Below, one piece after another: positions 1 through 40,212 of a stretch of 64,000 nt of DNA. Every line of letters starts with the position of its first letter. The stretch's first letter is position 1. The stretch is taken from assembly GCF_905475395.1 (NCBI RefSeq), contig NC_058337.1:111718368-111782367 (forward strand). The letters run 5' to 3'. The notes below the pieces were generated by a model. It did no database searches and was not told the origin of the DNA. It saw only the letters and a program-made list of their open reading frames with translations. A program made the position numbers and the translations under genes. The stretch is from Chrysoperla carnea. Taxonomy: Eukaryota > Arthropoda > Insecta > Neuroptera > Chrysopidae.

Positions 1-660
1 TATACACATATTGATTTGAAATTTTGCACAGTCGTACAGGGTGATGGGTCACATTTCTTAAGATACTTAACCAAAATCAGAACTTTAAACTCAGCCAACT
101 ACAAATTGACAAATACGGCCGATTTTTAATATTTTTCCTAGCGTCAGAGATGGTTAGAGATATCGAAAAAAAAACTATTAGAAAAAGTTGGTTAGAATAT
201 TTTTTTATACTCATATACCGATTTTCATGACAAAATTGGCATTTTTAATTTTTCATTCTTTGGTCTTTACTCAAAATTATTTCAAGTTTATTGAAGTATT
301 TGAATACATAACATTATACACATTATCAATTTGTCCAGTTTTTTACATTCCATAGCACACTAGTTAAAAATTAAAAATAAACTTTTATAAATAGTGTGCT
401 TGGAATGAAAAAATTGGAGAAATTGATAATTTATAATAGTGTTATGTATTCAAATATTTCAATAAACTTGTAACAATTTTGAGTAAAGGCCAAACTAATG
501 AAAAAATTGAAAATGCGAATTTTGTCATGAAAATCGGTACATATGGATATAAAAAATATTCTAAGCAACTTTTTCTTAAAATTTTTTTTGGGTATTTATA
601 ACCGTCTACCTCTAAACAACGAAAAAATGAGGGAGATTTCATCTTAAATGTGACACACTG
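1..660. repeat. Foldback element, family F1, copy 1
   Basis: Two arms of roughly 200 bases read as reverse complements about a centre near 378. The left arm has TCCATAGCACACTAG and the right arm has TAGTGTGCTTGGAATG. The outer parts are also related: TTGCACAGTCGTACAGGG near the left end and ACATTTAAGATGAAAT (reverse strand) near the right. It fills the intron immediately before the last exon of ODC-like copy A. No transposase reading frame is visible, so it is a non-autonomous element. Related copies are at 1609-1930 and 25855-26115. Confidence 0.75.
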
Positions 661-780: not shown

Positions 781-1077
781 GATTTGGTAGATCCAGAAAT
801 GCATCCATCAACGATTTACGGACCAACTTGTTGGGGTGAAGATATCGTTGATAAATCAATATATTTACCACAGTTACAAATTAATGACTGGCTATATTTG
901 GAAAAATTCGGCGCTTACAAACAAGTAGTATTTACGACTTTTAATGGTTTTTCAATGCCAAAAATGTATGCAATTTGTAGTACAGCCAAATGGAATCTTT
1001 TCAAAACAGATTTTCCGAATTCTGTAAATAAAATTCATGAACATGGTGGTACCTGCATGATTATCAATAATAATTAA
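781..1077 (+). CDS. Ornithine-decarboxylase-like copy A, last exon only (partial)
   Basis: This is the final coding exon of a fold-type III PLP decarboxylase of the ODC family. It starts after a pyrimidine-rich acceptor ending TTTCAACAG and runs 297 bases to TAA, exactly the length of the last exons of copies B and C. It encodes 98 residues beginning DLVDPEMHPSTIYGPTCWGED and includes the family landmarks GPTC, NDW, FGAY and TFNGF. The Cys of GPTC corresponds to mouse C360, which reaches into the partner active site of the dimer. The next residue is Trp instead of the usual Asp (mouse D361). The C-terminus is more diverged than in B and C (ends GGTCMIINNN). An AATAAA at 1131-1136 is a likely polyadenylation signal. 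Earlier exons would lie left of the window, because 1-780 holds only intron and repeat. Whether copy A is intact cannot be judged here. Confidence 0.85.
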   Translation, partial: DLVDPEMHPSTIYGPTCWGEDIVDKSIYLPQLQINDWLYLEKFGAYKQVVFTTFNGFSMPKMYAICSTAKWNLFKTDFPNSVNKIHEHGGTCMIINNN

Positions 1078-1608
1078 GAAAATTGTAAATTATTTTATAT
1101 TAATTAATTACTTAATATATTTTATTCTATAATAAATGACGTAATAATACTAATTTAATCTAAACACCTAAATATCTCGTTTTGTCGTCAACCAATCGAA
1201 AAATAACTTACACAAAAATTGCAAAATTTAATGGGAAGCGTCTTATTCTGTCATCAGATTGGACTTAGTTCTTCGGGTTTCTTTAATATCCAGTTTAGAT
1301 CCTAAACGGTAAGAGATATAAAAGAACACTTTAAATTAGAAAGTTTATCCTTATAAGAAAAACTAGCAATTTTTGTTTAAAATATTTTTTCGATAATCCT
1401 CAGCTTCATTCTCGTCAGCTTCGTCATTATTGCATTTAATCGAAAGAAAACACGTTAACTACAGAAAAAAGCTTTAGCCACTAGGTCCAATCTGATGTCA
1501 GAACATGATATCCCCTCATCAAATTCTGTAACTTTTGTTTCAACTGCAAGTTATTTTCATTTTCTTGTTTAAACAAATATTAGAAGACATATCGGTCAAA
1601 TAGTCAAT

Positions 1609-1930
1609 AGGTCTTTACTCAAAATTATAACAAGTTTATTGAAGTATTTGAATACATAACATTAAATTATCAATTTGTCCAGTTTTTTACATTCCATAGC
1701 ACACTAGTTAAAAATTAAAAATAAACTTTTATAAATAGTGTGATTGGAATGAAAAAACTGGAGAAATTGATAATTTATAATAGTGTTATGTATTCAAATA
1801 TTTCAATAAACTTGTAACAATTTTGACTAAAGGCCAAAATAATGAAAAAATTGAAAATGCGAATTTTGTCATGAAAATCGGTATATGGATATAAAAAATA
1901 TTCTAAGCAACTTTTTCTTAAAATTTATAA
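1609..1930. repeat. Foldback element, family F1, copy 2
   Basis: Nearly base-for-base the core of the copy at 240-600, including the central AACTAGTGTGCTATGGAATG (reverse strand) and its mirrored arm. It lacks the outermost segments of copy 1, so it is a shorter or end-truncated member. No coding content. Confidence 0.75.
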
Positions 1931-2517
1931 GTAAATCGTCATAGTCGTATAAGTCACAAACAATTCGTGATACTTACTATTAGTTTACAAAAAAGGTAGG
2001 TAATTTAATTTTCTATAATAAAGACTATTACCATTTTTGGTCTAAAGTGTACGATTATAGAGATATAGCCTAAAACGGTTTTCCTTAAGATGGAGTCACT
2101 TCCCCCGCCTATTTTTGTAAGAATTTTGTGCATTTAGGTACATTCAGTATGTGATACTGAACCTATTTAAATAATAAAATAACTCCTGTAATTTAGTGCA
2201 TTATGGACAATAATAACTAGCCTGTAGTATATAGCATATTTTATATTAAATAAATATTACACTTGATTTTAATACATTCTCTATTTACAATATCGTCCGC
2301 GTCGTCTATAAATCTTAAATATTTAACAGGTAGTGAGATAATACATTAAATATTTAACAGGTAGTGCGAATACAATAACAAAATAATTTATATAAAACTA
2401 TGAAGGGGTTATGATTTACAAAATTAAAGAATATTTAACGCGCTAAATACTTGATGCATGTGCAGAACGCGCGAGAAAATCTCTCATCAAGCGACATTTG
2501 TTTCTCGTCTTCAACGA

Positions 2518-3181
2518 TTAGCCCAGAAAAGAAAGACAATAAAAAAGTCGATCTGCTTAAAAAATCCAAGTGAAGTTTTTTCACCGGGATTATCTTAATT
2601 TGGATGTAAGAAATTACCTAAGAAAAGTCCATTACAAAATCATGTGCGCAAAAAAAAAAAAAATTCTGGGTCAAAAGTCGTGAAAATAGGGTTTTTTTAA
2701 ATATTTCGTAAACTATTAAGTTTATCGCAGATTTAGTTCTTATAAAATTTTTTCGCGAGTGGCTTTTATGTAAAAATAGTTCGGTACAAAATATCCGTGG
2801 AAGCAATAGTTCTCAAGATATTTAGCTGAAAAAATATCCAAAAAATTATTAAAAAATAAAATGTTTAAAAAAAATATTTATAATATTTTAAAAAATTAAA
2901 AATTTTATTTTAATTTTATTAATTTATGAAATATTTTTGATATTTTTCGCGTAAAGTATGCGATTTACTCTAACTTTTCTCAGTGAAATATTTTGAAAAC
3001 TATTGCTTCTGCGGAAATTTGGTACAGAACCTTTTTTGTGTAAAAGTAACTCGCAAACAAATTTTATAATAACTAAAACTGCAATACGTAAACTTAATGG
3101 TTTACGATGTATATGAAAAGAACATATTTTCGCAACTTAGATTTTTTTATGCAGAGAAACCTTTATTTTCCTGGGCTAGGT
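2518..3181. repeat. Large imperfect inverted repeat (foldback element)
   Basis: The left end reads TTAGCCCAGAAAAG and the right end, on the reverse strand, CTAGCCCAGGAAAAT. Inner blocks also mirror: AAAAAATCCAAGT against AAAAAATCTAAGT, and GCAATAGTTCTCAAGATATTT against its complement near 2985-3006. Arms are some 300 bases with an AT-only centre near 2850-2940. Sequence between the matching blocks has decayed. A 13-base A run near 2650 interrupts the left arm. Confidence 0.7.
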
Positions 3182-3329
3182 ATCCAAAATTTTTTTTTTT
3201 TTCAATGAAAAAAAACCAATATTCCAATTAGAAAATAACAATTGTTTATAAGTTATATAAAAAATTTTTTGTTTATGTAAAATTGATACTTTTTATTTAT
3301 AGCTGGTGAGTTAATTGCATCAATGTGAC

Positions 3330-3917
3330 CAGGGCCGGATTTAAATTTCTGCCGCCCTGGGGCGCTGAAGAAAATGCCGCCCTATGACTGAAATTTTATT
3401 TTAATAGTTTTGATATCTTATTTAAAAAAATTAGAATAACTAATTAATTGCAGAAAATTTATTATGTATTACATATTATTTATTACTGTTCTTTTAAATT
3501 TAAATTAATTGGTGTTATTGGATAATTCTCCAATTTAAGGAAAATTCATTGATCAATTAAAGTTTCTGTTATCAAAAAGACATAGATAATTTGAAAATAT
3601 TTTTAATGCTTCAAAAAAACTATATTTCTGGAATTGATAAAATATCAAATTTTATTTTTGCAAACCTTTATGGAAATAAATTAATTAAACTATTTTAATA
3701 GTTTTCACTTAAATTTCCTATATTATAATATACAAAATTTTGATTTGATACATAATGCATAAATTATATTTCTTGAAAAATAAAATGTTTATTTAAAAGA
3801 ATTAGTTAATTATATATTGTATTGAAAATATTTTTTCACTTTCCAATTTTTGCCGCCCTAGAAAATTTGCCGCCCTGGGCACTAGCCCAGACTGCCCCTA
3901 GTGTAAATCCACCACTG
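3330..3917. mobile_element. Non-autonomous hAT-type transposon with intact 8-bp target duplication
   Basis: The element begins CAGGGCCGGATTTAAA and ends TAAATCCACCACTG, giving hAT-type terminal inverted repeats starting with CAG. It is flanked on both sides by the identical 8-mer AATGTGAC (3322-3329 and 3918-3925), the 8-bp target duplication expected of hAT transposases. Subterminal GCCGCCCT repeats occur at both ends. The roughly 590-base interior is AT-rich with no transposase frame, so it must have been moved in trans. Confidence 0.88.
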
Positions 3918-4224
3918 AATGTGACAGCGTGGTAGTCACGTAAAGCACGAATACATATAGCAACTGACTTTTATCAATATTTGATTTTTTTTTCTTTATT
4001 TGTACATTTAAACTCAAATATTTAAAATTATACGCTATATATTATGTTATTACGTAATATTATATCTTCTATTTTATTTATTTTTTATTTCCAACTTTTA
4101 GGAAGTGATTAAAAATTAATAGAAAGTTTCTACCATTTTCTTCTAATAAAAACTTTTTTCTCGTTTTTAAATTGTTAAAAACAATTTTAGATTTAGGGTT
4201 AAAATTATATATATATATATAGTA

Positions 4225-4465
4225 CCTTATTTTCAACTTTGATGATGAATTTTGTTATTACTTCTTGAATGTAGACGAAAAATGAGAATACAATTTTTCG
4301 ATATATGCCTTGGTTTTTGAAATATCGAAAGCTAAATAATTAAACGAAATTTTCAATTTTCGATATTTTGAAAAATACTCCAGATATCGAAAAATTTTAT
4401 TCTAAGTTTTCTTCTTATATGGTCAAATTATAACATAATTCACCATCAAAATTGAAAATAAAATT
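4225..4465. repeat. Foldback element of about 240 bases
   Basis: The left arm TATTTTCAACTTTGATGATG is mirrored by CACCATCAAAATTGAAAATA on the right. Matching ATTTTTCGATAT blocks sit nearer the centre at about 4345. A short (AT)n run precedes it. No open frame. Confidence 0.65.
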
Positions 4466-4594
4466 TTTTTTTAATTTGTGTCCCCACTACCGTTTTCAAC
4501 ATCCTTAATTAGTCGGGCACAACGGGTTTTATTTGTTTTACAATAATTTATTAAGATTTTAACTTTAATTTAAATAGTTTCTTTTTGTTTTAGA

Positions 4595-4700
4595 TTAAAA
4601 AAGTGTTAAATATGCCTACTTTTGTATTCATTTATTCATTAAAATACTCGGGCAACCCCCTCCCCTCCGCCCAAACTTTTCAGAACTGATTTAAACTTAG
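4595..4700. repeat. Short dispersed repeat, inverted partner at 8120-8215
   Basis: The blocks AAATATGCCTACTTTTG and CTCGGGCAACCCCC reappear in reverse orientation inside the third intron of ODC-like copy B (GGGGTTGCCCGATTATT followed by AAAAGTAGGCATATTT). They are two members of one unclassified family. Confidence 0.55.
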
Positions 4701-5149
4701 TCCAAATTCAAAAAGTCTCATGACCGCACTCTTACTTTAAAAATAACTATAAAAATACCATTCAAATTTAAAATGGCGACCGGAAAATTCAATTTTTGTT
4801 AAATATACTGATTTTGAATCTCGATAAGATAAAACACGAATAAGCAAATACATTCGGAAAATGATATTGTTTTGGAGGTTTTCGAAGTTTCTGAATCCAA
4901 ATCTGAAATTAAAAATGTGAAAAATAAAATGGTGGCTGGAAAATTCAGTTTTTAGACAAAAAAACCTATTTTCACAAAAAAAAAATAAGCCAGATATTTC
5001 TTTTTTCTTTAAAAGTTTTTTTTACATATGTTTAAAATTTAATTTTTGTCTTTATATTACAAAATTATATTAAATATTATAATATTCATTAAGTTTAAAA
5101 CGGTGTTCTATATTACATGCTATACTGGTCCATGGGTACAATTCTTTCC

Positions 5150-5545
5150 CCTAGGTATATCTTAAATAATTAATTGCATTGCTTACATTTTAATTAAATT
5201 ACTCTATATAAGGTAATAAAATTTATGACGTTATTGAATGTATAAACTGTGCATATATTGAATTGCTTTCAGATATTTTCTGCTTTTTTCTTGCACGCGA
5301 ATTTTTTTATAAGATACGAGAAATTCTCGGAAAAATTTTCTTTAATATTATATAACAATTTGTTAGAGCTATTATTAGGATGTATAGAAACTTGTTTGAG
5401 GTTTATAATAGTTTTTTCATTTGTTTCTCGTACAGTTTCATTGTAGTTTGGTGCAATTGTATTATTCTGTGATTCGCGTTGCTCAAAAGTTCCTTTATTA
5501 ATTGATTTCTTTCAATTTTTTTGGTGTCTTTAAAGTTAAATAAAA
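5150..5545 (+). promoter_or_regulatory. Duplicated 5' flank of ODC-like copy B (promoter and 5' UTR region)
   Basis: This stretch is closely similar to 11630-12061 upstream of copy C, so the promoter region was duplicated with the gene. A TATATAAG at 5205-5212 could be a TATA box, which would put the start of transcription near 5235-5240. The corresponding place in copy C reads ACTATAATAAGG and is weaker. The last bases before the start codon, GTTAAATAAAAATG, are the same in both copies. No long ATG-initiated frame precedes the gene. Confidence 0.45.
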
Positions 5546-8500
5546 ATGAACGCTAATTGTATGAACCCGGAAAGTCGAAATGTGGTACAAATGATTATCG
5601 ATAAATTCGAAGAGAAAGATGCATTCCATTTAATTAACATAGATGATCTTGTAAATAAATACACAGAATTCCAAGAAGTTTTACCTAAAGTATTCCCATT
5701 TTATGGTAAGAAAAATTTTTAAATTATTATTACGAAATATTCTTGTTAAAATTAAAGAAGAATTGTTGATATTTTCATTTTATTTTCTTAAAATAAAGCA
5801 TCACCCGTACTAAAAATAACTCAAGAGTATGGCTATCGAATTATTGAATTATATATTGATTATGCAGTTTGAGATACTATAAGAATTTTCAGAGACCTAA
5901 ATTTTTGAAAATAAGGGAGAATAATCGTATTTCTTAACTTCAAAAAGCCAATGTATCAATTTTATTTACTTTTGTTTTAAATTTTCAAACTCAAAGGAAC
6001 AAAAAATATTTGTTTTAACAAATTATTATTAATTTTTTCACTATTATTCAAATGATATTTTCGTCTATTTGTACTTCGGTATAATAAATAACTAATAAAT
6101 AAATAATTAATTTCCGAAATCAAATTTTTTCTTGTTAATAAAAATTATCATTTATAAATATAAATAATAAATTATTATATATATAAATAATAAATATATT
6201 ATATAATTAATTTAATTTTATGACAATAAAATTAAGTTAATACACGCAAATATAAAAATCATAAATTTATTTGATTTGCACAAAAATGAATAAAAACTCC
6301 ATGAAATTAACATAATTTGTAAGTTTGGTACAGAAATTTATATGGACGTTTTCAGCAACTCTGTATAGTACGATTTAGGATAACATAATAGGCACAATTA
6401 TAAAAATCAAATAACTTCTATAATTACTTAAAAATATTTTATAAAATTTGCTCTTGAAACGTTTAGAAAAATATCAATATGATTATCCTTCCTAGGAAAT
6501 AAATACAAAAAATGTCATAGGCTCCACCTTCCCCGGCTGGTATTCTATAAATTCTAAAATATTTCTATAGTTGCAATTCATACCTTGAAGAGATGCATGC
6601 TGTTCTCTGTCCTGACCTTCCAACCCTTCCGGGCTACACTTCTGCCTACGGCCCTGATATCGCCCAACCTTTGTAATTAAATATAGATACGTTTGGTAAT
6701 TTTGATTTTTTTTAATCAATGTGTAATTCATACCACCTGTTCTAATTGGACTTTTAAAAGATTTTCCTTTTTTTGTAGCTGTGAAATGCAACAATGATGT
6801 AGTGATATTAAAAGTACTGGCAGCTTTGGGTATTGGATTCGATTGCGCTACAAAAAATGAAATTCAAACTATGCTATCGCTAGGTGTTTCACCAGATAAA
6901 ATTATCTATTCACATCCAATTAAACAAGAGCCACATCTTCAATATGCTGCCTCCGTAAATGTGGGAATGATGACATTTGATTGTATACCTGAGTTACATA
7001 AAATTAAGCAATATTATCCATCTGCAAAATTACTAATACGATTTAGCTGTGATGACGAAAAATGTGTGCATAAGTTTGGCGACAAATATGGCTGTAGTCC
7101 TGATAATGGTAATTATAGCTTTATCATTTCTTTTTCAGATATCTTATAAAGTTGCAAACAGACACGAAGGCGAACACCAAAGAACGAAAATACCAAACAT
7201 CATATAACATCACAAGGTGAATAAAATCGATTCGAACATTGATACTCTGGAATTTTTTCATTGTTATTTGGTGTGTGCCTCTTAGTGTCTGGTCGTAGAA
7301 TAATAAGAGAGTTTACTTGCGTGTGCCAGAAAAAACCCGAATACGGTAGATAGTTCTAGCAAAAAGTAGAACCAAGTATTCCATCACACTTATACGCTAT
7401 AAACATAGCCTTTTCGAATTCAAGTAATAAAATATATGTTCAATTCTATTTACAGAAGCATTTGAGCTATTTTGCGTCGCCCAATCATTAAAATTAAATG
7501 TTGTCGGAGTATCATTTCATGTTGGAAGTATTTCTCGAGACTATAACACGTACACATATGCAATAAAGAGGTCGCAAAAGTTATTTGCATTAGGGAAATC
7601 GATGGGATTTAATATGGTTCTATTGGATATTGGAGGTGGTTTTCCTGGTTACAATCAAAATGAGTTTCGGAAAATTGGAAGGATTGTTAATGATTCATTG
7701 GAAACATATTTTTCTTGTGAAAACATACAAGTTATAGCAGAACCTGGCCGGTATTTTGTTGAATCAGCTGTAACTGCGGCATGTCGAATAACTTGTATGA
7801 AAAAACGAGCAGAAAATATTTCGTATTACTTAAATGATGGATTATGTGGGTCATTGGCATTTTCTAACTTTTATAGTGACCCGTATGAGTTTAAAATTTT
7901 AAAAGTAGGTTAATTTTTATTTCTAAGGTCTATTTTCTTCATTTATTGCTAACCGAGAAATGAATCGATACCACTTTAAATATCAATACAAATTAGAAAA
8001 AAAAATTTCTCAAAAACATAAAAATACCAAAAAATACTAGAAATTCAGAGCAATTTTTCCTAGTTTTTTATGTTTTCTGGCCAATTTCGGGTAAAAAGGT
8101 TTGATTTTTTTATATGAAGTTGCCTAAGTCTAAATCAATTCTGAAAATTTTAGGGGGGTTGCCCGATTATTTAAATAAATAAATGACTCCAAAAGTAGGC
8201 ATATTTAACATTGGTCTTATGGGAAAACGATAGAATGGATTATATATTTTCATAGGCGCTAGGCTTGTACTACCTTAACAGTGAAATTAATTTTACGATT
8301 ATATAACTAACATTATATATTTTAACAGGACTTAAAAGACATGAAATTATACTCATCAATAATTTATGGGCCAACTTGTTGGGGTGAAGATATTGTAGAT
8401 AAATCAATACATTTGCCACAGCTACAAATAAATGATTGGTTATACTTGGATAATTTTGGTGCTTACAAACAAGGATTTGTAACAACCTTCAATGGTTTTT

Positions 8501-8625
8501 CAAGTCCAAAGATGTATGCAATATGTAGCACACAGAAATGGAAACTTTTCAAAGCGGATTTTCCAATTTCTAAGTATAAAATTCAAAAAGATGGTACCTG
8601 TATAATTATCGATAATAATTTATAA
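5546..8625 (+). CDS. Ornithine-decarboxylase-like protein, copy B (complete, 4 exons)
   Basis: Exons 5546-5705, 6779-7108, 7456-7904 and 8329-8625 join in frame to 411 residues, close to animal ODC length minus its C-terminal degron. The fold is an N-terminal PLP-binding barrel followed by a beta domain, acting as a cytosolic dimer. Visible motifs: FPFYAVKCN with PLP lysine K56; FDCATKNEIQ; SFHVGS with H185 and phosphate-binding S188; LDIGGGFPG (loop 223-225); EPGRY 259-263; GPTC with C330; FGAY; TFNGF. Departures: W331 replaces the substrate-binding Asp (mouse D361). Ungapped alignment puts Y303 at mouse D332, with an Asp two residues later. C294 replaces mouse Y323. PLP chemistry looks possible, but ornithine binding is doubtful. 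The gene could be a decarboxylase for another amino acid or a non-catalytic regulator, though unlike antizyme inhibitor it keeps the lysine. AATAAA at 8774-8779 is a likely poly(A) signal. Confidence 0.92.
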
Positions 8626-8818
8626 AGAAAAGTTATTTTATTCATTAACATTAATTTTTTCATGACTGTATATACAAAAAGCTGAAGCTTAAAATGTCAA
8701 GTGTGTGATACTGTTTATTGCTAATTTATTTTAAGTAAACAAACATAATTGTAAAATTTTAATTATTTTTTATAATAAAAATATAAAATAGTCAACGACA
8801 TTTAAAATATTTCTTTTT

Positions 8819-9410
8819 ATACCATGTATATATGAAATATATATCAAGGTATACTAAGTTTAGTCCCAAATTTGTTACGCTTAAAAATATTGATGCTACG
8901 AACAAAATTATGTTATAGATGTTCATGAAATCCATTTCTAGTTGTCCTTTGGACTGTCCGCCCGTCTGTCTGTCAGTCGACACGATAACTCAAAAACGAA
9001 AAAATATCACAAGCTGTAATTTTTATAGCGTGCTTGGGACATAAAAGGTGAGTCAAGCTCGTAAACATAGGTCAATTGGGTCTTGGGTCCATAGGACCCA
9101 TCTTGTAAACCGTTAGAGATAGAACAAAAGTTTAAATGTAAAAAATGCTCCTCTAAAAACAACTTTTGTTTGAGACATTTTTTCGTAAACAACACTGTTT
9201 ACCCGTGAGAGTGCAAATTCTATAATATTTATTATATGGAAATATCAGTAAGTGTCTATGATATGTATGTATGTGTGGATATCTAAGAGTGACTATCTTT
9301 CTTTACTTATATGAAGTAAAAAAACAAACGATTGCGGAATTAACACTGTCTATACATGGTATTTCAACAATTAACTCAATCAATTGATTGTTTTCACTTG
9401 TTTAATGGTA
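8819..9410 (+). mobile_element. Interspersed repeat family M, copy 1
   Basis: Starts ATACCATGTATA and carries the inverse TATACATGGTAT at 9351-9362. It then continues with a short conserved tail (CAACAATTAACTCAAT) seen in the other copies. The body has a GTCTGTCTGTCAG block and the shared phrases TTTAGTCCCAAATTTGT, CAAAAGTTTAAATGTAAAAA and CACTGTTTACCCGTGAG. Other copies are at 26171-26800 and 38435-38950, with a 3' fragment at 10219-10300. No transposase is visible. Confidence 0.75.
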
Positions 9411-9625
9411 AATGTGCATCAAATAAGAAAGAATCTTATTTAATATACAGAGATATTAAATTTCGATAATTTGAATTCAGCATGCTTTTGTAAGCAGCCT
9501 CTCATTTTCCCCAAATTTATTTCCCATTAAATATAGGTACTTCCCTAAATATGGCGTTTAAAATCAAACATTCAGAGCAATGGTGCATGTATCATTGCTC
9601 TATATGAACCAGACGGATCAAGAAG

Positions 9626-9688
9626 AAGCAACCGGTTTGAACCAACCGGTTCAAGAAAAGCAACCGGTTTGAACCAACCGGTTGAAGA
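9626..9688. repeat. Two tandem copies of a palindrome-rich unit of about 31 bases
   Basis: The block AAGCAACCGGTTTGAACC, followed by AACCGGTTCAAGAA, occurs twice head to tail. Within each unit AACCGGTT is a perfect palindrome, so the tract has four AACCGGTT sites. GC content is well above the surroundings. Confidence 0.75.
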
Positions 9689-9934
9689 AGCCGAGATATG
9701 GAGGGGTGGAAAAATATTAATAATATTATAATTCCATTATATGTAATAATCTTTTTTACATGAGTTACTGCGATTAACAATTTTTAACATACTAGATGGA
9801 ATAAGATCTGGTATAAGATCTGGATGGTACAAGAGTATAAAGAAAAAGTTGATTTTAAGCAGTGTTTGCAATTTACAGTTTTTTTGGCTGAATATTTGAT
9901 TCTTTTCTTTTTAAGATTAGGTTGGTTAAAATAC

Positions 9935-10440
9935 GTCAGACACCTAAGAGCGGTTACGGTATTTGCTTTGAAAAGTGCGTATTCCCAAAAATTACTGATT
10001 TTAAAATTATTTTAAGAAAATTTTCTTTAAATCATTTTTCATGTCTTTTTAGCCACATAAATTAGATTTGCTGAACAATTTTCACGTAGCCAGCACATCG
10101 CCACATCACTTCACACACCATTTCAGTGGGACTGTAACTTTTATATGATTCCTAGAATGTAATTTTGTATATTTTAAATTTATACGTTACATATATTATG
10201 TATGTGTTTGTTTGTTTATCTTTCTTAACTTATATGACGTAAAAAAACAAACGAACGCGTAATCAACACTGTCTCTACATGGTATTTCAACAAATAACTC
10301 CCGAATTTTCCCGTTGCTAGCTAACACCGCGCCATACATTATTATAATAAAAAAAAAAACCTATTCAATCATTTTAGCGGGACTGTAAATTTTTCCTATA
10401 ATGTAATTTTAATTTCCCAGAAGGTTGCTTTATTAGCGCG
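9935..10440 (+). mobile_element. Decayed composite element related to the one at 38185-39014
   Basis: CACCTAAGAGCGGTTACGG at the left resembles the terminal CACCTGAGAGCGATTGCG of the 38 kb element. Bases 10219-10300 match the 3' end of family M. AATGTAATTTTAATTTCCCA with GGTTGC and GCGCGG near 10395-10440 mirrors the other terminal region. An internal duplication (GGGACTGTAA followed by AATGTAATTTT) occurs near 10125 and 10375. The order of pieces suggests one old, rearranged copy. Confidence 0.5.
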
Positions 10441-11629
10441 GATCTTGTGTTTAATATTATATATATTGTGGAAACCCACCCACGTACAAAATAGTCTACG
10501 AGTACAAAACAGTCTACTAGTCAAGTTTACTAGTACGCGATGTCTTATATAAACACTGACGGAAAAAAATTATCTAATTATAGATAATTCTCAAGATCTT
10601 AACCCTGCCCCATAGTCTGCTCTTTTTTTTTACTCCTTGCATACAAAATTTTTACCATTTTCTTCTAATCTATAAAAACTTTATTGATCTTGAAATAACT
10701 GTTTTTTATTTAAAATTGATAAATTGCATTACCCTTAGCAATTTTGAAAAGATAATTATTAATTACCTGGAAATCTACTGCATTTAAAATTAAAATAAAG
10801 ATATAAATCTTTCCGGCAAAACATTTCAATCGATAGGGGAAAACATTTAGTTCAGAAGAGATAAAACCGACTTTACAAATCTGTAAGCTTTATAGTGTCT
10901 ATATAGCGTATTTTAAAAAATTTGAAATTAAATAATATAAGCTTGGAAATTTTTTCAAAAATTTGTTTCTAACCCAAAATTATCAAGATGAGGTTCAGTA
11001 TCTTGAAATAAATAAAGTGTTAAATTTATATACAATGCCAGATTGGATATGCAAGCGAACATATATACTGTAGTATATTATACAGGGTGTGTACTTAAGC
11101 TGGCTACATATGGAAAACTTTTTTATTATAAGGTTTACGAAAATAAGTTATTCTTTATAAAAATCTCTGCTTTCGAAAATATTAACATTCAGCTATTTAC
11201 TCTTGACAACGAATGTACAGAGTGTCTAAAAATTGAAAGAGTTCGACAGGAATATTAATGGCCGTATAGATTTTTAGACCATTTAGAACAGATAATAAGA
11301 GAAACAGTTTAAGAAATCACTTCCGAGATATGTAGGAATGTATTTAAAGAATTTTGAAATAACAATTTCATGTATGGAATATAATAAAACTTTTTACAAT
11401 AAAATGTAAATCACTAAAGATCAAATATTTTAATAAACAATTAAATTGCCTATAAAAAGTTACTGCACCATATTTGAAAAAAAGGAAAAAACCTTTATTT
11501 TCGGATTCAGCAGAAAAAACTACGCTGAAAATCATAAGTCGTTTTCGTGGTACTCAATCGGCCACGAAAACCGGTTCAGCTGCCAGAGTAATCTTCATAG
11601 AGCTAATTAGCCCAGGTTATAAACCTTTC

Positions 11630-12061
11630 CCCTATATCTAAAATGCGTAATTACATTGCTTACATTTTAATTAAATTACTATAATAAGGTGGTTAAATTT
11701 ATGACGTTATTGGATGTATAAACTGTGCATATATTGAATTGTTTTCAAATATTTTCTGCTTTTTTTACACGCCAATTTTTTATTAGGTTTGAGAAATTTC
11801 CGGAAACATTTTCTTTAGTATTATATCAATTTTTTAAAGCTATTATTAGGATGTATAGAAAATTATTTAAGATTTTTAAATGTATTAATGTTAGTAGTAT
11901 CTCGTAAACCGTTCAGTTAATAATAAAGTTATTTTTTTTCATTTGATTCTCGTACAGTTTAATTGTAGTTTAGTGCATTTTTATATTATTCTGTGACTCG
12001 CGTTGACAAAAGATTTTTTTATCATTTGCAATTTTCTTGGTGTTTCCAAAGTTAAATAAAA
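11630..12061 (+). promoter_or_regulatory. Duplicated 5' flank of ODC-like copy C
   Basis: Counterpart of 5150-5545. Shared blocks include TTACATTTTAATTAAATTAC, AATTTATGACGTTATTG, GTGCATATATTGAATTG and ATTATTAGGATGTATAGAAA. A short extra segment near 11875-11935 distinguishes it from copy B. The TATA-like stretch is weaker than in copy B, which may mean different expression. Confidence 0.45.
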
Positions 12062-15000
12062 ATGAACGCTAAATGTATGCAACCGAAAATACGAAATATG
12101 GTACAATTGATTATCGATAAATTCGAAGAGAAAGATGCATTCCACTTAACTAACATAGATGATCTTGTAAATAAATACACAGAATTCCAAGAAGTTTTAC
12201 CTAAAGTTTTTCCATTTTATGGTAAGAAAAATTTTAAAATTATTATTACGAAATATTCTTGTTAAAATTAAAGAAGAATTGCTGATAAATTCATTTTATT
12301 TTCTTAAAATAAAGCGTCATCCGCACTAAAAATAACTCAAGAGTGTGACCATCGAATCGAATTATATATTAATTGGACAGTTTGGGTTAACTATAAGTAT
12401 TTACAGAAAAATAAATTTTTGAAAATTAGGGAGAATAATCGTATTTCTTAATTTCAAAAAGCCAGTGTATCAATCTTATTTATTTTTGTTTTAAATTTTC
12501 AAACTCAAAGGAACAAAAAATATCATTTTTAATAAATTATTATTAATTTTTTCACTATTATTAAAATGTTATTTTCATCTTTTTGTGTCTCTGCGTCACA
12601 AAATCTGCACAGAGCAAATATTTGGTGATATACATGTGATATATACATGTATATATCTATTTTTAACTATTTTTAACAAATTTTAGAAATTTTAAACCTT
12701 AGAAACCTTAGAATTTTTACTGAATTAATAAACATATATAATTAACTAGTGCAGATTTTGTGACGCAGAGATACTTCGATATTATAAATAACGCATTAAT
12801 TTCCAAAATCAAACTTTTTCTTGTTGATAATAAAATTAAGTTAATAATACGCAGATATAATAATCATAAATTTTATTGTTTATTTGATTTGCACATAATA
12901 TGAATAAAAACTGAATGAAATAAACATAATTTGTATGTTTAGTACAGAAATTTTAATGTATCTACGTTTTCAGCAACTCTGTATTGGTACGATTAAGGAA
13001 GCATGATTCAATTTAAAATTAATAAGTAATAGTTTTAAAAAAAATAGCTATTATAACTAGTTGTTCTAAAAAGTAGTTATTAAGTTCCAAAAAAAAATAA
13101 TAATAATAGAGTGAATCAGAAAATTATTTTATCGTAAAAAAGCGTGGGATGCCAGATTTCAATTATTGTAAATATGTTATTGACAGATATTGGTAAAAGT
13201 AGAGTCATTACAAAATATCTTAAATAATGCACCTCACGTTTTGTTACGATTAAATTATTTTTTAATTAATCATTCTATTTTTTTTATTTATAGAAATTAT
13301 TTTCTACTTTTTAGTTCTGCTAGTAACAAAACCATGTATTTTTGTTTTATTAATCTACTACTTATTTCCTACTTTTTATACTACTACCATCAACCCACCC
13401 CCTGCCCCCACCCGTCTTGAATTTCTCTTGTTAATATAGATACGTTTGGTAATTTCGATTTTTTTTATATTAAATGTCACCCATACAATCTGGTCTAATT
13501 GGACTTTTAAAATACTCAACTTTTTTTTCGTAGCTGTAAAATGCAACAATGATGCAGTGATATTAAAAGTTCTGGTAACTTTGGGTATGGGTTTCGATTG
13601 TGCCACAAAAAATGAAATCCAAACTATGTTATCGCTAGGTGTTTCACCCGATAAAATTATCTATTCACATCCAATTAAACAAGAGTCACATCTTCAATAT
13701 GCTGCCTCCGTGAATGTGGGAATGATGACATTTGATTGTATACCTGAGTTACATAAAATTAAGCAATTTTATCCATCCGCAAAATTATTAATACGACTTA
13801 GCTGTGATGACGAAACTAGTCTGCATAAGTTTGGCGACAAATATGGCTGCAATCCTGATATTGGTAATTATATCTTTATTACTTACTTCTCTTTTAGATA
13901 TCTTATACAGTTACAATCAGGCACGAAGGCCAACACCAAACAACACCAAACAACAACGAAAATGACATACGTCAAATAACATCGCAAGGTGAATAAATGT
14001 TTTTCATTGTAGTTTGATATGTGCCTTCGTGTCTGCCCACAGCACAATAGGTGAATTTACAATAAAAAGTAAAACTTAATATTAAATGACACTTATATGC
14101 TATAAACATAGCCTGTCCGAATTCGAGTAATGAAATATATTTTCAATTCTATTTACAGAAGCATTTGAGCTACTTTGCGTCGCACATTCATTAAAATTAA
14201 ATGTTGTCGGAATATCATTTCATGTTGGAGGCAATTGTCGAGACTATAACTCGTACACATATGCAATAAAGAGATCACAAAAGTTATTTGCATTAGGGAA
14301 ATCGATGGGATTTAATATGGTTCTATTGGATATTGGAGGTGGTTTTCCTGGTTCCGATCAAATCGAGTTTCGAAAACTTGGAAGGATTGTTAATGATTCA
14401 TTAGAAACATATTTTTCTTCTGAAAACGTACAAATTATGGCAGAGCCTGGTCGGTATTTTGTTGAATCAGCTGTAACTGCAGCATGTCGAATAACTTGTG
14501 TGAAAAAACGGGCAGAAAATATTTCGTATTACTTGAATGATGGACTATGTGGGTCATTTGCATTTACTAACTTTGTTAATGGCCCATTTGAATTTAAAAT
14601 TTTAAAAGTAAGTAAATTCCGTTTATATTCTTGTTCATAAGGTCTATTTTCTTCATTTATTGATAACCATAAAATGAATCGATACTACTTTCAATAACGA
14701 AATGTTTTGAATCTTCTTTTTGTTTTTGATAACATTTCGAATCCACCCCCCTCCCCATGGTCACGAAGTGTATACCTCTAAAAAGATTTTTTCCTAATTG
14801 GGGTACTGAATTAAAGTATAATACAGTGGACCCCCGGTAATCCGGCAAACGTTTTGCAAGACAGTCGGACTATCGAATTTGTCGGATTATTGAGTACTGC
14901 CTAAGACCCCCTATAGTCCGGAATTTTTTACAAAAGAGTACCTTGTTATCCGACAAATCACACATGCAATTATAAGATTCTATATGTTATACTCTGAAGT

Positions 15001-15903
15001 ACAAATCATATTTCAATACAAAAACAGTAGTCGGATTACGGGGGGCGCCGGATTAGCCAGGGGGCCGGATTACCGGGAGTCCACTGTGTATAAATTATAA
15101 TTATCTAATAATAATACAATTAACATTCTACCACATACATAATATCTTAAGGGTATATAAAAACATGTTTGGAATTTATTAAAACAATGATATTTTCTTT
15201 TTTATTTAAAATGGTAATTTTATTTTTCCATTCCTTTTAAATTAACTTAGTTATCATTAAGTCAAGGTTATGGCATAATCCAAGAGCTGGAAACACATTT
15301 AGAGCACGAATTTGATGCAGCTAGTCATTGCCAGAAAGTAGAGCTGAAAAGGGCCCGTACGAAAATCAAATTTTGGGGCCCCATTCGAAAGTCTTTCGTT
15401 AAAATAATATTATGGAAAAGCATAGTAAAAATACAGTTTTTATTCACATTCTAAACTAAACAACAATTTTTATATTTCATGTTGAATCAAAAATATTTTT
15501 CAACGCTTATTTTACCTTGAGCAGTACTTTGAAAACTTCTTTTAAAAACAGTCATTAATAGTGAATTTGGTTTAACTTTTATTTAATTAGCGTTATATTT
15601 TAACAGGACTTAACAGACTCGGAATTATACTCATCAATAATTTATGGACCAACTTGTTGGGGTGAAGATATCGTAGATAAATCAATACATTTACCTCAGT
15701 TACAAATAAATGATTGGTTATACTTGGAAAATTTTGGTGCTTACAAACAGGTGTTTGTAACAACTTTCAATGGTTTTTCAAAACCAAAGACGTATGTAAT
15801 CTGTAGTACAAAAAACTGGAATCTTTTCAAAGCGAAATTTCCAATTTCTGAGTATAAAATTCAAAAAGATGGTACCTGTATGATTATCGATAATAATTTA
15901 TAA
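12062..15903 (+). CDS. Ornithine-decarboxylase-like protein, copy C (complete, 4 exons)
   Basis: Exons 12062-12221, 13534-13863, 14159-14607 and 15607-15903 have exactly the same lengths and phases as copy B and give 411 residues. K56 (AVKCN), H185, the GGG loop, EPGRY, C330 and the FGAY and TFNGF motifs are present. As in A and B, Trp (W331) follows GPTC. In addition, the phosphate-binding Ser of HVGS is Gly (HVGGNC). The region equivalent to mouse D332 reads TNFVNGPFEF, with no Asp at all, and Cys replaces mouse Y323. The frame is intact with no stops and exon identity to B is high, so it is probably expressed, though with an even less ODC-like pocket. Introns 1 and 3 and the 3' UTR carry transposons absent from copy B. 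AATAAA at 16365-16370 is a likely poly(A) signal. Confidence 0.92.
12588..12771. mobile_element. MITE of about 184 bases in intron 1 of copy C
   Basis: Perfect terminal inverted repeats: TCTCTGCGTCACAAAATC at the left is mirrored by GATTTTGTGACGCAGAGA at the right. Copy B has the uninterrupted site (TTTGTACTTCG) where copy C has TTTGTG, the element, then TACTTCG. This is consistent with a TA target duplication whose left TA has mutated to TG, as for Tc1/mariner-type elements. Confidence 0.85.
14824..15086. mobile_element. pogo/Tigger-like MITE in intron 3 of copy C
   Basis: Begins CAGTGGACCCCCGGTAATCC and ends GGATTACCGGGAGTCCACTG, the terminal signature of pogo/Tigger-type elements of the Tc1/mariner superfamily. 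TA dinucleotides are at 14822-14823 and 15089-15090. Internal sequence repeats GTCCGG and TCGGATTA motifs. Roughly 260 bases, no transposase. Absent from copy B intron 3. Confidence 0.82.
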
Positions 15904-19883: not shown

Positions 19884-22800
19884 TTATTGCTGTTTACAGC
19901 CATCTTTCGCACGTGATTTTTTTGCTTTCTTCTCTAAAGAAGCAGTGCGACGTTGACCTTGAATCGGCATATATGGAGGGACAGGACTAGATTCATCATC
20001 TGAAATATCTATTTAAAAAAATTTTTTAAGTAACAATACAACCAATTAAAACATTATTTTAGCATTCAAATTAAGATGAGCATTTCTGTGGGCTGTATTA
20101 TGCATTTTGTTAAAATATATCCCCTTAAGGTTAACTAGAGTACATGTGACGATTAAGTTTATTGCTTAATTATACTTGTGGTGTACACTTTTTACCTGTT
20201 TTATTTGAATGGTGATCGAAAAACAACACAATTTGGGCAGTGTTTCTTTTAGTTACCTGTTTCATTTGTGTTGTCTTGAGATACGATATTTTATGCTATT
20301 TTTCATCTTTTTTATTTATCTTTCCTCTTATTATTTGTTTGATTTAATTTTTATTTTTTATTTTTGCTTATCATTTTTACTTAATTTGATTTTTTGTTTG
20401 TTTCAGGTTGTCATTTGGTAAAATTTTTTATTTTTTCAACTTATTTTCTTGTATTTTTATTTGTTTCTTTTCACTTGTTTTTATTTTTATTTCTGTGTTT
20501 TTTATTTTATATTTACAACTTTTTTTATCTTATATTTTATTTTCAGGCTTAATCCCTTGGTTTTTTTGATATATTCATAACGATAATCCTATCTTAGGAT
20601 TAAAACTTAATATTTTTAGGTGAAAGCAGGCAGTTACATTGTTTTAGAGGGTGTAACATAAAGATTTATTATTATTATAATCGGGTAAATAATTTTATTT
20701 TAATTTTAAGGGTAATATTTTATTATTATTTGTTTCAGGTTGATGCGGTCTTTTTCGGATTTTTTAATTTTAAGACTTTTTAATTTTAAGAGGTTTAATG
20801 CTACTGAAGAGGATTGCCAAAGCAATCGAAACCGGTCTAGCTAATTAATAATTTTATAATCTAGCTAAATATTTTTATTGTGGGTCCTTAAGGTAGTACC
20901 AGCATGAAATCACTTTTCGACAGATTTGGCCGAATTTTTTTTCTCGGGTTTATAATAGCTTTATTTATGAATTCCTAAAATTTCATAATTTTTGACCGTT
21001 TAGATCGCGAGATATTTAAAGACAAAGTTCGCGATTTTGAGGGTCATGTCCCATTTAAAGCATGTAAAATATCCGGTCTCTCCAACTATTTTTTATGATA
21101 TTATTATATATTGAAGAAAAAGTAGAAAAAAATGTTTATACAATACAATTCTAAAAAAAAAATTTAGAAATTAATTTTCACTTTCGAGATATTAATTTTG
21201 ACGTAAATTGATCGAAATTGGGACGTTGGCATAATTATTTCCCATTTTAAACGGTCAAAATTTCTGAAACTTTGGGAATTAATAGTAAGCATTATTAAAT
21301 TCTTAAATTTAATTTTTCGTTAAATTCTGTCGAAAAAAAAATTGTACCATTGCTTTAACATAGAAACTGCAAATACCATGCTGGAACATCGTTAAGGGGA
21401 TATATTTTAACAAAATGCATTATTTTAGCAATTTTAATTTGCCAGTTGGACATCTTTCTTCCACAAATGGTCAAATCTCTCACAAAGATCTCAAAGTATC
21501 GCATATAGCCAAAAGTCAGTTAATAAAATGAACAAAAGAAGTGATGAAGTTCATTAAAAATGGCGCGGTGAAGCGTCGAGTAGACACTATGTCTCTTTGC
21601 CCATTATATTTCTCTCACATCGACACAACGGTACTGTTCGCTCTAGTATTTGGATTCTTGTTAAATTATATTCCTCTGGCGGAAAAATTTCTCTTCGTTG
21701 CGCAAGTAAAATCATAAGAACTTATGGAATCTTTTTTTTTTAAATGTGGAGCATTGTACTTAAATAGCAATATTAAGAATGCCTTTTCATTTTTTTACTT
21801 TCTTCGGTTCAAAGAACATCGAACATAAATTTGCAAGTCAAATACAGCCTTGTTTATCCTCCGGAATCGCATTGACTTAATACGATTCAAAATTTTGCTA
21901 TAGACATTGTTATCTTATTGTCTTTTCCGAACAAATTTAATAGAAAACTGGTCAGAATTTAACTACTATCTCGATAAATTTAAATTTTTTGACAATTCAA
22001 TCAAAATGTTAAAAAAAAATGTATGTTACTAACCTGCGGGTGACGGTAATGAATTAATTGGACTGGTTGCAGCAAAATTCCCTGAATCATGTGGTGACGT
22101 TGAATTTGAATGTATTCGTCGATTATAGGTCGGATCAATTGCCATTGCAATATTGAATTGTTGCTGTGTCCCTACATTAGGTGTACTTGCTGTACTTGGT
22201 TGTAAACCACTTTCTGGAGAATCACAATACCAAGAGCCTTTCGATGATCGTGAACTAGATGTCTTAAGATCTAACTGACCAGGTCGCATCATATGCATGG
22301 GAGATGATAACCGTGGATCGATGATCCCAGAGTCATTGCTTTTATTCGGTGAAGAGACACCAGTTTTTCGTATTTCAGTTTGATAGCTTTTTGTGGGACT
22401 TGTCTTTAATGGAGATTTTGAATTTGTCTCCTGAATGTTATCAATTGGATAACTGTAGTTAACATCATCTTCTATAGTGTCTAGGTTATAAGAATGCGCA
22501 TATTTTGAACGCCCATTTACTGGATATGATTCAGAGGTTGTAGGAGACGATGTCTGTTGTTTCAGTACATCAGTTTGACTTATTAAATCAACGGGATCCG
22601 AGTATGAGTCTTCTTGATTTAAATTTGGTGGATCAGGATTTATTGTTTGAATTTTATTCATTTCTTGTTGCTGTTGCAGTTGTTTTTTAGCAAGCGAACG
22701 CTGTTTTGCTCGTTCACGAGCTCTGCGAGCTTTAGCTCTTTCCTAATAAAAAAAATTTATTGTTCAATAACTGTTCAGTAATCATTTGTTTAAAAAAAAC

Positions 22801-25800
22801 TTACCCTTTCTTGTAGCACTCGGGCTAACTCTTTATCCTGTGCCTCAATTGCCATTAGACGATCTTTAGAGAATTGTGAAATTTCATTAGCATCCTGTTC
22901 TTGAAGTTGCCTGGCAAGCTCCTAAAAAAATTCAACACTTTACACATTTAAACTAAGTTTTGTAAAATAAGAATTATTTCTTTAAAAAATTATCTCGTAT
23001 TAAGTTCGAGCATCTGTTGAATATTCGACGCACCAATCTACGAGTGTTACTCTAGTCATGTGTAAATAAAAATCATGCACCAGAATAACACCCGCCAATC
23101 GACAAGTCAAAACATCTCACACTCACAAATCTTATTCTACAACCTTATCTAGCTTTGGATAAATTCTAAAGTATAATAATTTAACGAAAGGTTTACCGCA
23201 TCTTTTTCCTCTTGTAAACGTTTCTCTTCCACCTCATCAAGTGGAATTCCAACTTCATCTGATAGCGCTACATGACTTAATATTTCAGTTAACTCTGCTT
23301 CTGGATTATTTGGATCTATAATATTTTCATAACTATTACTCATTTTCTTAACTCGGGGTAATGGAACATTTTGATATGCCGCTGTTGTAGACTGTTGTAA
23401 ATTTTCATCAATCGAATACTGTTCTGGTATTATTGTGGGTATGCGTGGATTAAAATTTGATTGTTTAGGCGTGTTTGGCAGTGGTATAAGTTGTCCTTGT
23501 CTTCGTGGCGAGGATGTTGTTGATAATACTACTTCTGGTGGATAAGATTTTTGTGGACTTATATTATTATTATTTGTTAAATTAAGTGATTGTTGACAGT
23601 TTTTTGAGACTGATTGTTGAATATTTTGTAACACAGGTTGTTGTTGAGCCAAAGCTTCTTCTTTTAAACGTAATTGTTTAAGCCGGTCTTGTTCCTAAAA
23701 ATAAAAATAAACTCTAATTAGGCACACCATGATCTTAGATTTAGATTAAATTTCAAAATGACAATAAGAATAAGAGCACAATACGGTGATATTTAAATAG
23801 CTTACCAGAAGACGTCTAGCAATTTGCTTGTCATGTTCTTCTAGTAACTTTCGTTTAATTTCCTCTTCTTTTTCTAGTCGTTCAGCAATTTGAGCAGCTA
23901 CTCGTGCATCTTTTTCTTCCCTACAATATAGAAAATTATTAAAAATTAAAATTAAAACCAATAAAGTTTGGTACATACTGTTCGCGAACCATTTGTTGAT
24001 ATAAGGCTGCTTGATATTCTGCTTGACGCTCTTCACGTAATTGTTCAGTGAGTGCACACGGAAAATCTTCGCGAACTTGAGCATTTCTATTTTTATTGCC
24101 AGATAAATGTTGATCGACTAAAATGAAAACAAAAGTCATTTAATGTAAAGTAATTTTTAAAAAAATGGTCATGATTTCTGAACTATGGGATTTACCCCAC
24201 TTACTGTATTAAGACCTTTGTATTCGATTTTAAAAATAATATTGTAGCTTCCTAATACCTTTGAAAAACCTAGGAAGCAATTATTTAATTTATATACCGA
24301 AATCAAAAATAAATTTTGATATTAATTTGAAAATTGAAATAATTTTAGTAATTACAACACATTTTTCAAGGCTATTACAAATTTTTAATTTCATCCCGAA
24401 TTTGTCACGCTAAAACATCAAGGTCAAAAAATTACTAATATTTGATTCTAACAATCTTAGCTGGCTGAACAGTGGATGAAGTTTTTCGCGGCTCAAATTC
24501 ACAATTATGAAAGACTATACATTTTAACGTCATTAGAGGTAGCATTTTTCGACAAATAAAATTGATTTTCGTATTTTCCTAATATACCTAATTCTAGGTG
24601 GTATATCAAAAAATTTTGTTTTAATAATAACGTGTTTTTGGATACTAATTACCCTCAAGTTTGATTTTATTCAATATCGAAAATCAATGTTTTTAAATTT
24701 AATCTGTACTTAGCGATTTATTCGCTTTTCATAGCCGAATATTCCTCTTTCAGAGATGTCAGTTGCAAGACACCTTGAAAATCTTAATAGATCCGGTAAA
24801 ATCCGTCATTGAGCATGAATAATTTTCGCATTGAAAATTTTTGCAGGATCCCGTTAAAAGAATGCTAATGAAAGTAAAAGTGCAGGTTGACGGTGGGTAA
24901 CTTGGTAGGCTATTGTTTAAACTAATCTTTTTTAAGCAAATAAATAATATTGACCAAATCGCTTCGGAAAAAAATTGATTAAATAATTGAGATCAAATAA
25001 AGAAAAAATGTTCTAAGATATTTTTCTCTAAACCCTCAATTTTCGAGTAAACAATTCGTAAAATTTGAAAAAACGCTATTTTTACGATTTTTATTCCTCA
25101 AAAAGTGGATGAAAAAATCAGATTTTCAATATGTATAAAATTTTTATTTGTAGTGTAAAGCTAACTCAACAACATCCCTAAAAAATTCTTGGCCTAATTG
25201 TATTTTAAGTACTTTATTGTCAATTGCTAAGAGAGCACGCGAAAAACCAACCAAAAATAACGACTTTCTGTTCTATACATGCTCTAAGGTGGGTTTTTCA
25301 CCAATCACCTCGAAATAAAGTGTTGTAAAAATAGTTTTTCCAATTTTCCGGAGGGTGTTTCCGTCTTTCTATGAGGGGTTTTATATATCCGTCTTTCTAG
25401 ATTAAAAATCAACAAACTTACGCTAAAAACCTGAAACATTTAACCTACATTTTGTAAAAAATAATAAGCGAAATTAGAAAATAAATGGAGCTATTGCACA
25501 AGCTGATACGAATAAATTATATATGCATATTTTTTTTTAAATAATAGAATAATCATTTTTAATTGAATTACTTACTATGATGAATTATGAGAAAAACAAC
25601 GAAACTTACTTTCTTCATTTTGTAAGCGATATGCTAATGCACCATCTTCACGTACTAACCATTCACGGCATACTGTAATGTAAACAAATTCATTCATTTA
25701 TCATATTATTCATGCTTAGTCAAAACAATCATTTTATAAATTAGAATAAATTAAATATGAAAATAAGAATAGAATAATCTAAAAATATGAAAATAAGAAC

Positions 25801-40110: not shown

Positions 40111-40212
40111 TGATGATATCACGTGTTAATATTTCAGTCTTTTCACTGTTGAAGAATTAAGTATATTACAGAAAATACAAAACACAAACAAATTGATAAG
40201 AAACATTTAACG

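What the first reader, a model, noticed from the sequence alone, without database searches (positions are those of the whole stretch)
781..15903. ODC-like tandem array keeps the PLP site but lacks both acidic ornithine-binding residues
Seen: B and C have the PLP lysine (AVKCN), active-site His, GGG loop, EPGRY and the cross-dimer Cys, in intact 411-residue frames. All three copies have Trp directly after the Cys (GPTCW). Known: in animal ODC that position (mouse D361) and mouse D332 together hold the delta-amino group of ornithine. Aligned without gaps, the D332 position is Tyr in B and Val in C, and mouse Y323 is Cys. Copy C also lost the phosphate-binding Ser. Inferred: the family has changed substrate (perhaps a bulkier or uncharged amino acid) or become a regulator. 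Because the Trp is shared by all three, the change predates the duplications.
Basis: partly seen in the sequence, partly recalled or inferred. Interest (0 to 1): 0.75.

Follow-up and report, generated by a model that had tools for sequence, protein, structure and literature searches.

The report
Lacewing ODC copies with altered pocket
A green lacewing carries a small family of intact ornithine-decarboxylase-like genes that keep nearly all of the cofactor and reaction machinery but have lost the residues that recognise ornithine, which suggests a decarboxylase with a different, still unknown substrate.

Summary
The genome is Chrysoperla carnea. Copies A, B and C are intact four-exon, 411-aa genes; only exon 4 of A lies in the window. 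All carry GPTCW. Two further full-length copies (D, E) and a fragment (F) elsewhere share the Trp. The genome also has a canonical-looking ODC (GPTCDG, YGSF...LYDH) and an antizyme-domain match. Across the five full copies, 17 of 18 cofactor, catalytic and structural sites are identical to human ODC (the exception is S200 in C), while human Y323, Y331, D332 and D361 became C, F, A/Y/V/V/C and W. Pairwise dN/dS is 0.19-0.33, so these genes are constrained. Best reading: active PLP decarboxylases that no longer use ornithine and probably take an uncharged or hydrophobic amino acid. Precedents: mouse Gm853 (leucine decarboxylase) and the Entamoeba ODC-like enzyme. Substrate, expression, structure and spread to other insects are untested. 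A separate cluster (G, H, I) shows two more fates of ODC duplicates: other altered active sites (H, I) and a full-length likely pseudoenzyme without the PLP lysine (G).

The parts
781..1077 (+). Copy A, exon 4 (exons 1-3 lie upstream of the window, within G000:C1:111715705-111718302); Trp361 codon at 832-834
   Evidence: Gene model, GT-AG junctions, 411-aa open frame; PF00278
5546..5705 (+). Copy B exon 1 (start ATG)
6779..7108 (+). Copy B exon 2 (PLP lysine K69, D88, E94, R154)
   Evidence: Pfam PF02784
7456..7904 (+). Copy B exon 3 (H197, S200, GGG, EPGR, C323, F331, Y332)
   Evidence: Pfam PF02784
8329..8625 (+). Copy B exon 4 (GPTC-W, D364, Y389, F397, stop); Trp361 codon at 8380-8382
   Evidence: genome-wide PF00278 match
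12062..12221 (+). Copy C exon 1
13534..13863 (+). Copy C exon 2 (PLP lysine)
   Evidence: genome-wide PF02784 match
14159..14607 (+). Copy C exon 3 (S200 to Gly; C323, F331, V332)
   Evidence: PF02784 match
15607..15903 (+). Copy C exon 4 (GPTC-W, stop); Trp361 codon at 15658-15660
   Evidence: PF00278 match

Best explanation
The array is part of a subfamily of ODC paralogues, found here in one lacewing genome, that are working PLP-dependent, fold-type III decarboxylase dimers whose side-chain pocket no longer accepts ornithine. The amino acid forms the usual aldimine with PLP on K69; H197, R277, E274, the GGG loop and Y389 hold the cofactor and C360 from the partner subunit takes part in product formation (shown here only as conserved residues). 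The far end of the pocket, where D332 and D361 bind the terminal amine of ornithine, is rebuilt by Trp361, Cys323, Phe331 and a variable, mostly hydrophobic residue 332, so it should favour an uncharged, hydrophobic amino acid such as leucine, giving a monoamine and CO2 (inferred). The loop at 322-333 differs between copies, so the copies may differ in specificity (inferred). A separate canonical-type ODC covers polyamine synthesis (inferred from sequence).
For: Intact genes A, B, C, D, E with GT-AG junctions. dN/dS 0.19-0.33 in 10 of 10 pairs, upper bootstrap 95% bound at most 0.50. PLP set 12 of 12 kept (C 11 of 12) and 17 of 18 non-substrate sites identical to human in all five; substrate-contact sites changed: CF[A/Y/V/V/C]CW against YYDCD in the canonical gene. 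Four of the five residues listed as important for dimerization (K169, R277, D364, Y389) are kept (list in PMC5518511). A canonical-type ODC and an antizyme-domain match exist elsewhere. Of 12 sites that are human=canonical but have 3 or more states among A-E, 4 fall in the 322-333 loop (11 of 198 such sites; P 0.002, test chosen after seeing the data). Precedents: mouse Gm853, an ODC paralogue that decarboxylates leucine and not ornithine or lysine (PMC6313458); Entamoeba ODC-like enzyme with changed 323, 332 and 361, weak on ornithine and without activity on arginine and lysine, whose authors suggest a new specificity (PMC2217671).
Against: No activity, expression or structural data. Mouse Gm853 uses leucine while keeping both Asp positions (PMC7671201; PMC5518511), so residues do not map simply onto substrate. 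D332, lost here, is also listed among the residues that stabilise PLP and the dimer (PMC5518511). Acids lie one or two residues after position 332 in A, B, D and E and could bend into the pocket. Trp is bulky and could simply block the pocket. The looser test of loop variability (any variable site, 6 of 57) gives P 0.06. Copy C has lost S200, a PLP-site residue.
Confidence: 0.62

Rival explanations
1. The proteins are catalytically silent regulators, antizyme inhibitors or partners of the canonical ODC, that merely resemble the enzyme.
For: ODC homologues are reported to have repeatedly become inactive, likely regulatory forms (Ivanov 2010: not held; seen only as a reference title and as described in PMC5518511). 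An antizyme-domain match is present. Position 332 varies among the copies and D332 also serves PLP and dimer (PMC5518511).
Against: AZIN1 carries S277, S331, E332 and D389 and does not bind PLP (PMC6313458); 277 and 389 are intact in the five copies and 331 stays aromatic. Y323 and D361, which AZIs are reported to keep (PMC3543441), are the ones changed here. K69 and C360 are intact here; PMC6738921 says AZIN1 and AZIN2 lack residues such as K69 and C360, while PMC3543441 says the Cys is mostly conserved in AZIs, so that point is disputed. In the antizyme-binding element (117-140) 8 of 24 sites are identical to human in all five copies together, against 13 of 24 in the single canonical lacewing ODC (not a like-for-like count). 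Of seven main antizyme-contact sites the Trp copies keep one and the canonical gene two. Insect antizyme contacts are not known to me.
Confidence: 0.2
2. They still decarboxylate ornithine or another basic amino acid, using the Asp/Glu one or two residues after position 332 in a reshaped loop.
For: A, B, D and E carry E, D, D and E two columns after 332. The Entamoeba enzyme keeps some ornithine activity with 323, 332 and 361 changed (PMC2217671; PMC3543441).
Against: Copy C has Gly there. D361 is Trp in all copies and Y323 is Cys. A canonical-type ODC already exists in the genome. Five of five prokaryotic homologues confirmed have D or E at 361, a small, pattern-limited sample.
Confidence: 0.12
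3. Decaying duplicates: pseudogenes or relaxed copies.
For: Fragment F lacks exons 1-2 and has G199 to Arg. Copy C lost S200. dN/dS is somewhat higher among the younger copies B, C, D (0.24-0.33).
Against: Five open frames of 401-413 aa with GT-AG junctions at dS up to 0.77, and dN/dS clearly below 1 in all 10 pairs.
Confidence: 0.04

Closest known systems
Animal ornithine decarboxylase (EC 4.1.1.17; fold-type III, PF02784+PF00278)
   Same: 41.5-43.1% identity to human ODC over 369 aligned sites; 18 of 20 critical residues kept (C: 17); the best PDB matches are ODC chains
   Different: Y323C, Y331F, D332 lost, D361W; 401-413 aa against 486 aa in the lacewing canonical gene, which has a longer C-terminal tail
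Mouse Gm853/ODCrp leucine decarboxylase
   Same: ODC paralogue in an animal; keeps the cofactor site; does not use ornithine or lysine (PMC6313458; PMC7671201; PMC5518511; passages only)
   Different: Gm853 keeps the Asp after the catalytic Cys (C338-D339), whereas the lacewing copies have Trp
Entamoeba histolytica ODC-like enzyme
   Same: PLP residues largely kept while ornithine-contact residues 323, 331, 332 and 361 are changed (H, F, E, N in PMC3543441; PMC2217671, lists the changes slightly differently)
   Different: 323, 332 and 361 become polar or acidic there, in the lacewing uncharged; weak ornithine activity reported (PMC2217671); the lacewing genes form an expanded family
Antizyme inhibitors AZIN1/AZIN2
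   Same: ODC paralogues with altered position 332
   Different: AZIs are reported to keep Y323 and D361 and AZIN1 has changed 277, 331 and 389; here 277 and 389 are kept and 323 and 361 are changed
PBCV-1 arginine decarboxylase (2NV9, 2NVA)
   Same: ODC relative with a substrate change and D332 replaced (by Glu; described in PMC2217671)
   Different: Retains an acid at 332 for a basic substrate; the lacewing copies have none at 332 or 361

Membership tests
Ornithine decarboxylase (functional, EC 4.1.1.17) | PF02784 and PF00278 domains; K69, H197, GGG, EPGR, C360, Y389 | tested here: met
   Domains exon by exon; residues
Ornithine decarboxylase (functional, EC 4.1.1.17) | Ornithine-contact residues Y323, Y331, D332, C360, D361 | tested here: not met
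   Only C360 is identical; C, F, variable, C, W; list from PMC3543441
Ornithine decarboxylase (functional, EC 4.1.1.17) | Ornithine decarboxylation | not testable with these tools
   Needs an assay
Antizyme inhibitor (AZIN) | Changed PLP-site residues as in AZIN1 (277, 389) | tested here: not met
   R277 and Y389 kept in A-E; AZIN1 residues from passages of PMC6313458
Antizyme inhibitor (AZIN) | Binds antizyme more tightly than ODC | not testable with these tools
   Antizyme-domain match present; binding element weakly conserved relative to human
Leucine decarboxylase (Gm853 type) | Orthology to Gm853 | not tested
   No Gm853 sequence was available; it was not in the tree
Leucine decarboxylase (Gm853 type) | Activity on leucine | not testable with these tools
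   Needs an assay

The most novel reading that the evidence does not exclude
The lacewing copies are a new animal amino-acid decarboxylase family that turns a hydrophobic amino acid (leucine first, then valine, isoleucine, methionine or phenylalanine) into a volatile monoamine, possibly a precursor of amides in the defensive or signalling secretions of green lacewings, with each copy tuned by its own 322-333 loop. The link to lacewing amides such as N-(3-methylbutyl)acetamide is recalled, not read; the open papers seen name that amide only for Bactrocera fruit flies (listing, passages).
Probability: 0.3. Interest if true: 0.68.

Novelty: new variant of a known kind. Interest (0 to 1): 0.5.

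Why it matters
It gives a clean natural experiment on how an ODC-fold enzyme may change substrate: one canonical-type gene and five intact relatives in the same genome that differ where ornithine is gripped. In the passages read here only one animal ODC paralogue (mouse Gm853) is said to use a hydrophobic amino acid, and it does so while keeping both acids, so the lacewing set would show a second solution. It also warns against annotating such genes as ODC or antizyme inhibitor from similarity alone.

Tried and rejected
Viral contigs with copy B as a single-protein query (close relatives only): one pattern match, no relative. Prokaryotic genomes with alignment A1: 33 pattern matches, five confirmed relatives, all D or E at 361, none Trp; a wider prokaryotic control failed because the centre must be a G handle and was not pursued. 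NCBIfam gives only matches far below cut-off for B and H. A literature link between lacewing secretions and leucine-derived amides was sought (paper not held) and 29 and not found for lacewings. Searches for insect or lacewing ODC duplications (4 papers; 49: 2; 50: 12 listed of 829; 51: 2; by title and start of abstract only) listed nothing on this family; the library holds open-licence papers only, so this is weak evidence that it is not in print. A single omega from a codon model was tried, but iqtree printed none and the omega=1 run was not read, so only pairwise NG86 values are used. One search used mis-set exon ends for B and is superseded. Pseudogene readings of A-E were rejected on open frames, splice sites and dN/dS.

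Structure prediction was not used: its rule asks for proteins that the DNA gives letter for letter, and a spliced four-exon protein is not that; single exons would not show the dimer pocket.
Full report
Where it is. The window is G000:C1:111718368-111782367 in an assembly of 337 contigs and 559,487,470 bases. Scaffold lengths (139,979,878; 100.74, 77.48 and 76.43 Mb) match the published Chrysoperla carnea assembly, whose longest scaffold is 139,979,878 bp and which has 337 scaffolds (PMC10116181, passages). Two chromosomes and the total differ slightly (94.12 against 94.41 Mb, 38.56 against 38.62 Mb, 559.49 against 560.25 Mb), so this may be another version of that assembly or one with stretches left out.

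The genes. ODC-family domains were sought in the whole genome (PF00278, 10 matches; PF02784, 18 matches) and with copy B (34 matches, which I assign to ten loci; the tool calls its counts lower bounds). Gene models were built by hand from conserved exon frames and GT-AG sites. A, B and C have 411 aa each, D (C1:130143211-130146412) 413 and E (C5:69925790-69930862) 401. F (C5:69979314-69980561) has exons 3 and 4 only, with 97-98% DNA identity to E over three aligned blocks; no exon 1 or 2 was found. The canonical ODC (C1:50816-48365, minus strand) has 486 aa with YGSFNNILYDH and GPTCDG. A further cluster at C5:15972614-15988498 holds G, H and I. One antizyme-domain match (PF02100, E 1.5e-13) lies at C5:66.22 Mb.

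The active site. The nine full-length lacewing proteins were aligned with human ODC 32-418. Of the 20 residues listed as most critical for ODC (PMC5518511, passages), the canonical lacewing gene keeps 20, A, B, D and E 18 and C 17; H and I keep 15, G 11. In A-E the two lost by all are D332 and D361, described there as the residues that interact with the substrate (D332 also with PLP and the dimer); C has also lost S200. Of the five human residues reported to contact ornithine, Y323, Y331, D332, C360, D361 (PMC3543441, passages), A-E read CFACW, CFYCW, CFVCW, CFVCW, CFCCW. Of the other 18 sites 17 are identical to human in all five copies, against 123 of 369 sites overall (P 4.6e-8), and 17 of 18 are invariant within the clade against 228 of 369 (P 0.0017).

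Alignment caution. In the phmmer alignment (alignments of five of 47 matched sequences shown) B is shifted by one residue, with Ser at D332; MAFFT places a one-residue gap at 335. Neither alignment gives an acid at 332 or 361, but an Asp or Glu lies one or two positions downstream in four of five copies.

Selection and history. Pairwise NG86 dN/dS among A-E is 0.19-0.33 in all 10 pairs, with bootstrap 95% upper limits of at most 0.50. dS is 0.19-0.24 among B, C, D, 0.64 between A and E, and 0.69-0.77 between {A,E} and {B,C,D}. The Trp clade has 100% ultrafast-bootstrap support; its position relative to G/H/I and to the canonical ODC is unresolved (42 and 37%). The Trp is in all five and in F, so it predates these duplications.

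Interpretation. Catalysis needs K69-PLP, the cofactor ligands and C360, nearly all unchanged; substrate choice depends on D332, D361 and their neighbours, all changed. This looks like a substrate change and unlike AZIN1, which has S277, S331, E332, D389 (PMC6313458, passages), while AZIs are said mostly to keep Y323 and D361 (PMC3543441). Papers disagree on C360 in AZIs, so I do not lean on it. The direction of change (Trp, Cys, Phe, Ala/Tyr/Val/Cys) points to an uncharged or hydrophobic side chain, which is inference. Mouse Gm853 shows that an ODC paralogue can be a leucine decarboxylase, yet it keeps the Asp after the catalytic Cys (PMC7671201, passages). The Entamoeba ODC-like enzyme, changed at the same sites, was weak on ornithine and showed no activity on arginine and lysine (PMC2217671, passages). 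Isoamylamine and isobutylamine rise in encysting Entamoeba invadens (PMC3360610, passages), but the passages assign no enzyme.

Results against. The loop-variability test was chosen after seeing the data (P 0.002 for sites with three or more states; P 0.06 for any variable site). Copy C lost S200. The phylogenetic spread is unknown because no other insect genome was searched. The prokaryotic control is five sequences. Expression and structure were not tested.

Verdict. Confidence 0.62 for an active decarboxylase with a changed substrate, about 0.3 for a hydrophobic amino acid in a volatile-amine role.

Noticed in passing
G000:C5:15980288-15983138 and 15986533-15988498 (copies H and I, both in L030): Two intact ODC paralogues (427 and 424 aa; dN 0.108, dS 0.439) that keep K69, H197, GGG and D332 but have R277Q, S200C, D88E, C360 to M/I and D361E (GCTMES/GCTIES, EFGQY): a second kind of altered active site.
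   Followed up: partly
G000:C5:15972614-15978085 (copy G, in L029): A full-length 416-aa frame with GT-AG junctions that has lost the PLP lysine (Arg), H197, S200, two of the GGG glycines, R154 and Y389: a likely pseudoenzyme and a better candidate regulator than the Trp copies.
   Followed up: partly
G000:C5:69979314-69980561 (copy F, in L035): Recent partial duplicate of copy E (97-98% identical DNA) with exons 3 and 4 only, G199 to Arg and a frame that runs on past E's stop.
   Followed up: partly
window 200-584 and 1610-1926: Two AT-rich elements flanking copy A exon 4, 95% alike over 236 nt, each with inner inverted repeats of 55-59 nt (89-92% complementary), looking like a small non-autonomous transposon.
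   Followed up: partly
window 23749-24117 (-): ORF with a CCDC50_N match (PF15295, 26.7 bits against a cut-off of 27), so the array seems to sit beside ordinary host genes; the neighbouring ORFs at 22032-22742 and 23152-23694 matched no family.
   Followed up: partly
window 40153-40563 (+): hAT transposase C-terminal fragment (PF05699, 25.6 bits against a cut-off of 21.4).
   Followed up: partly
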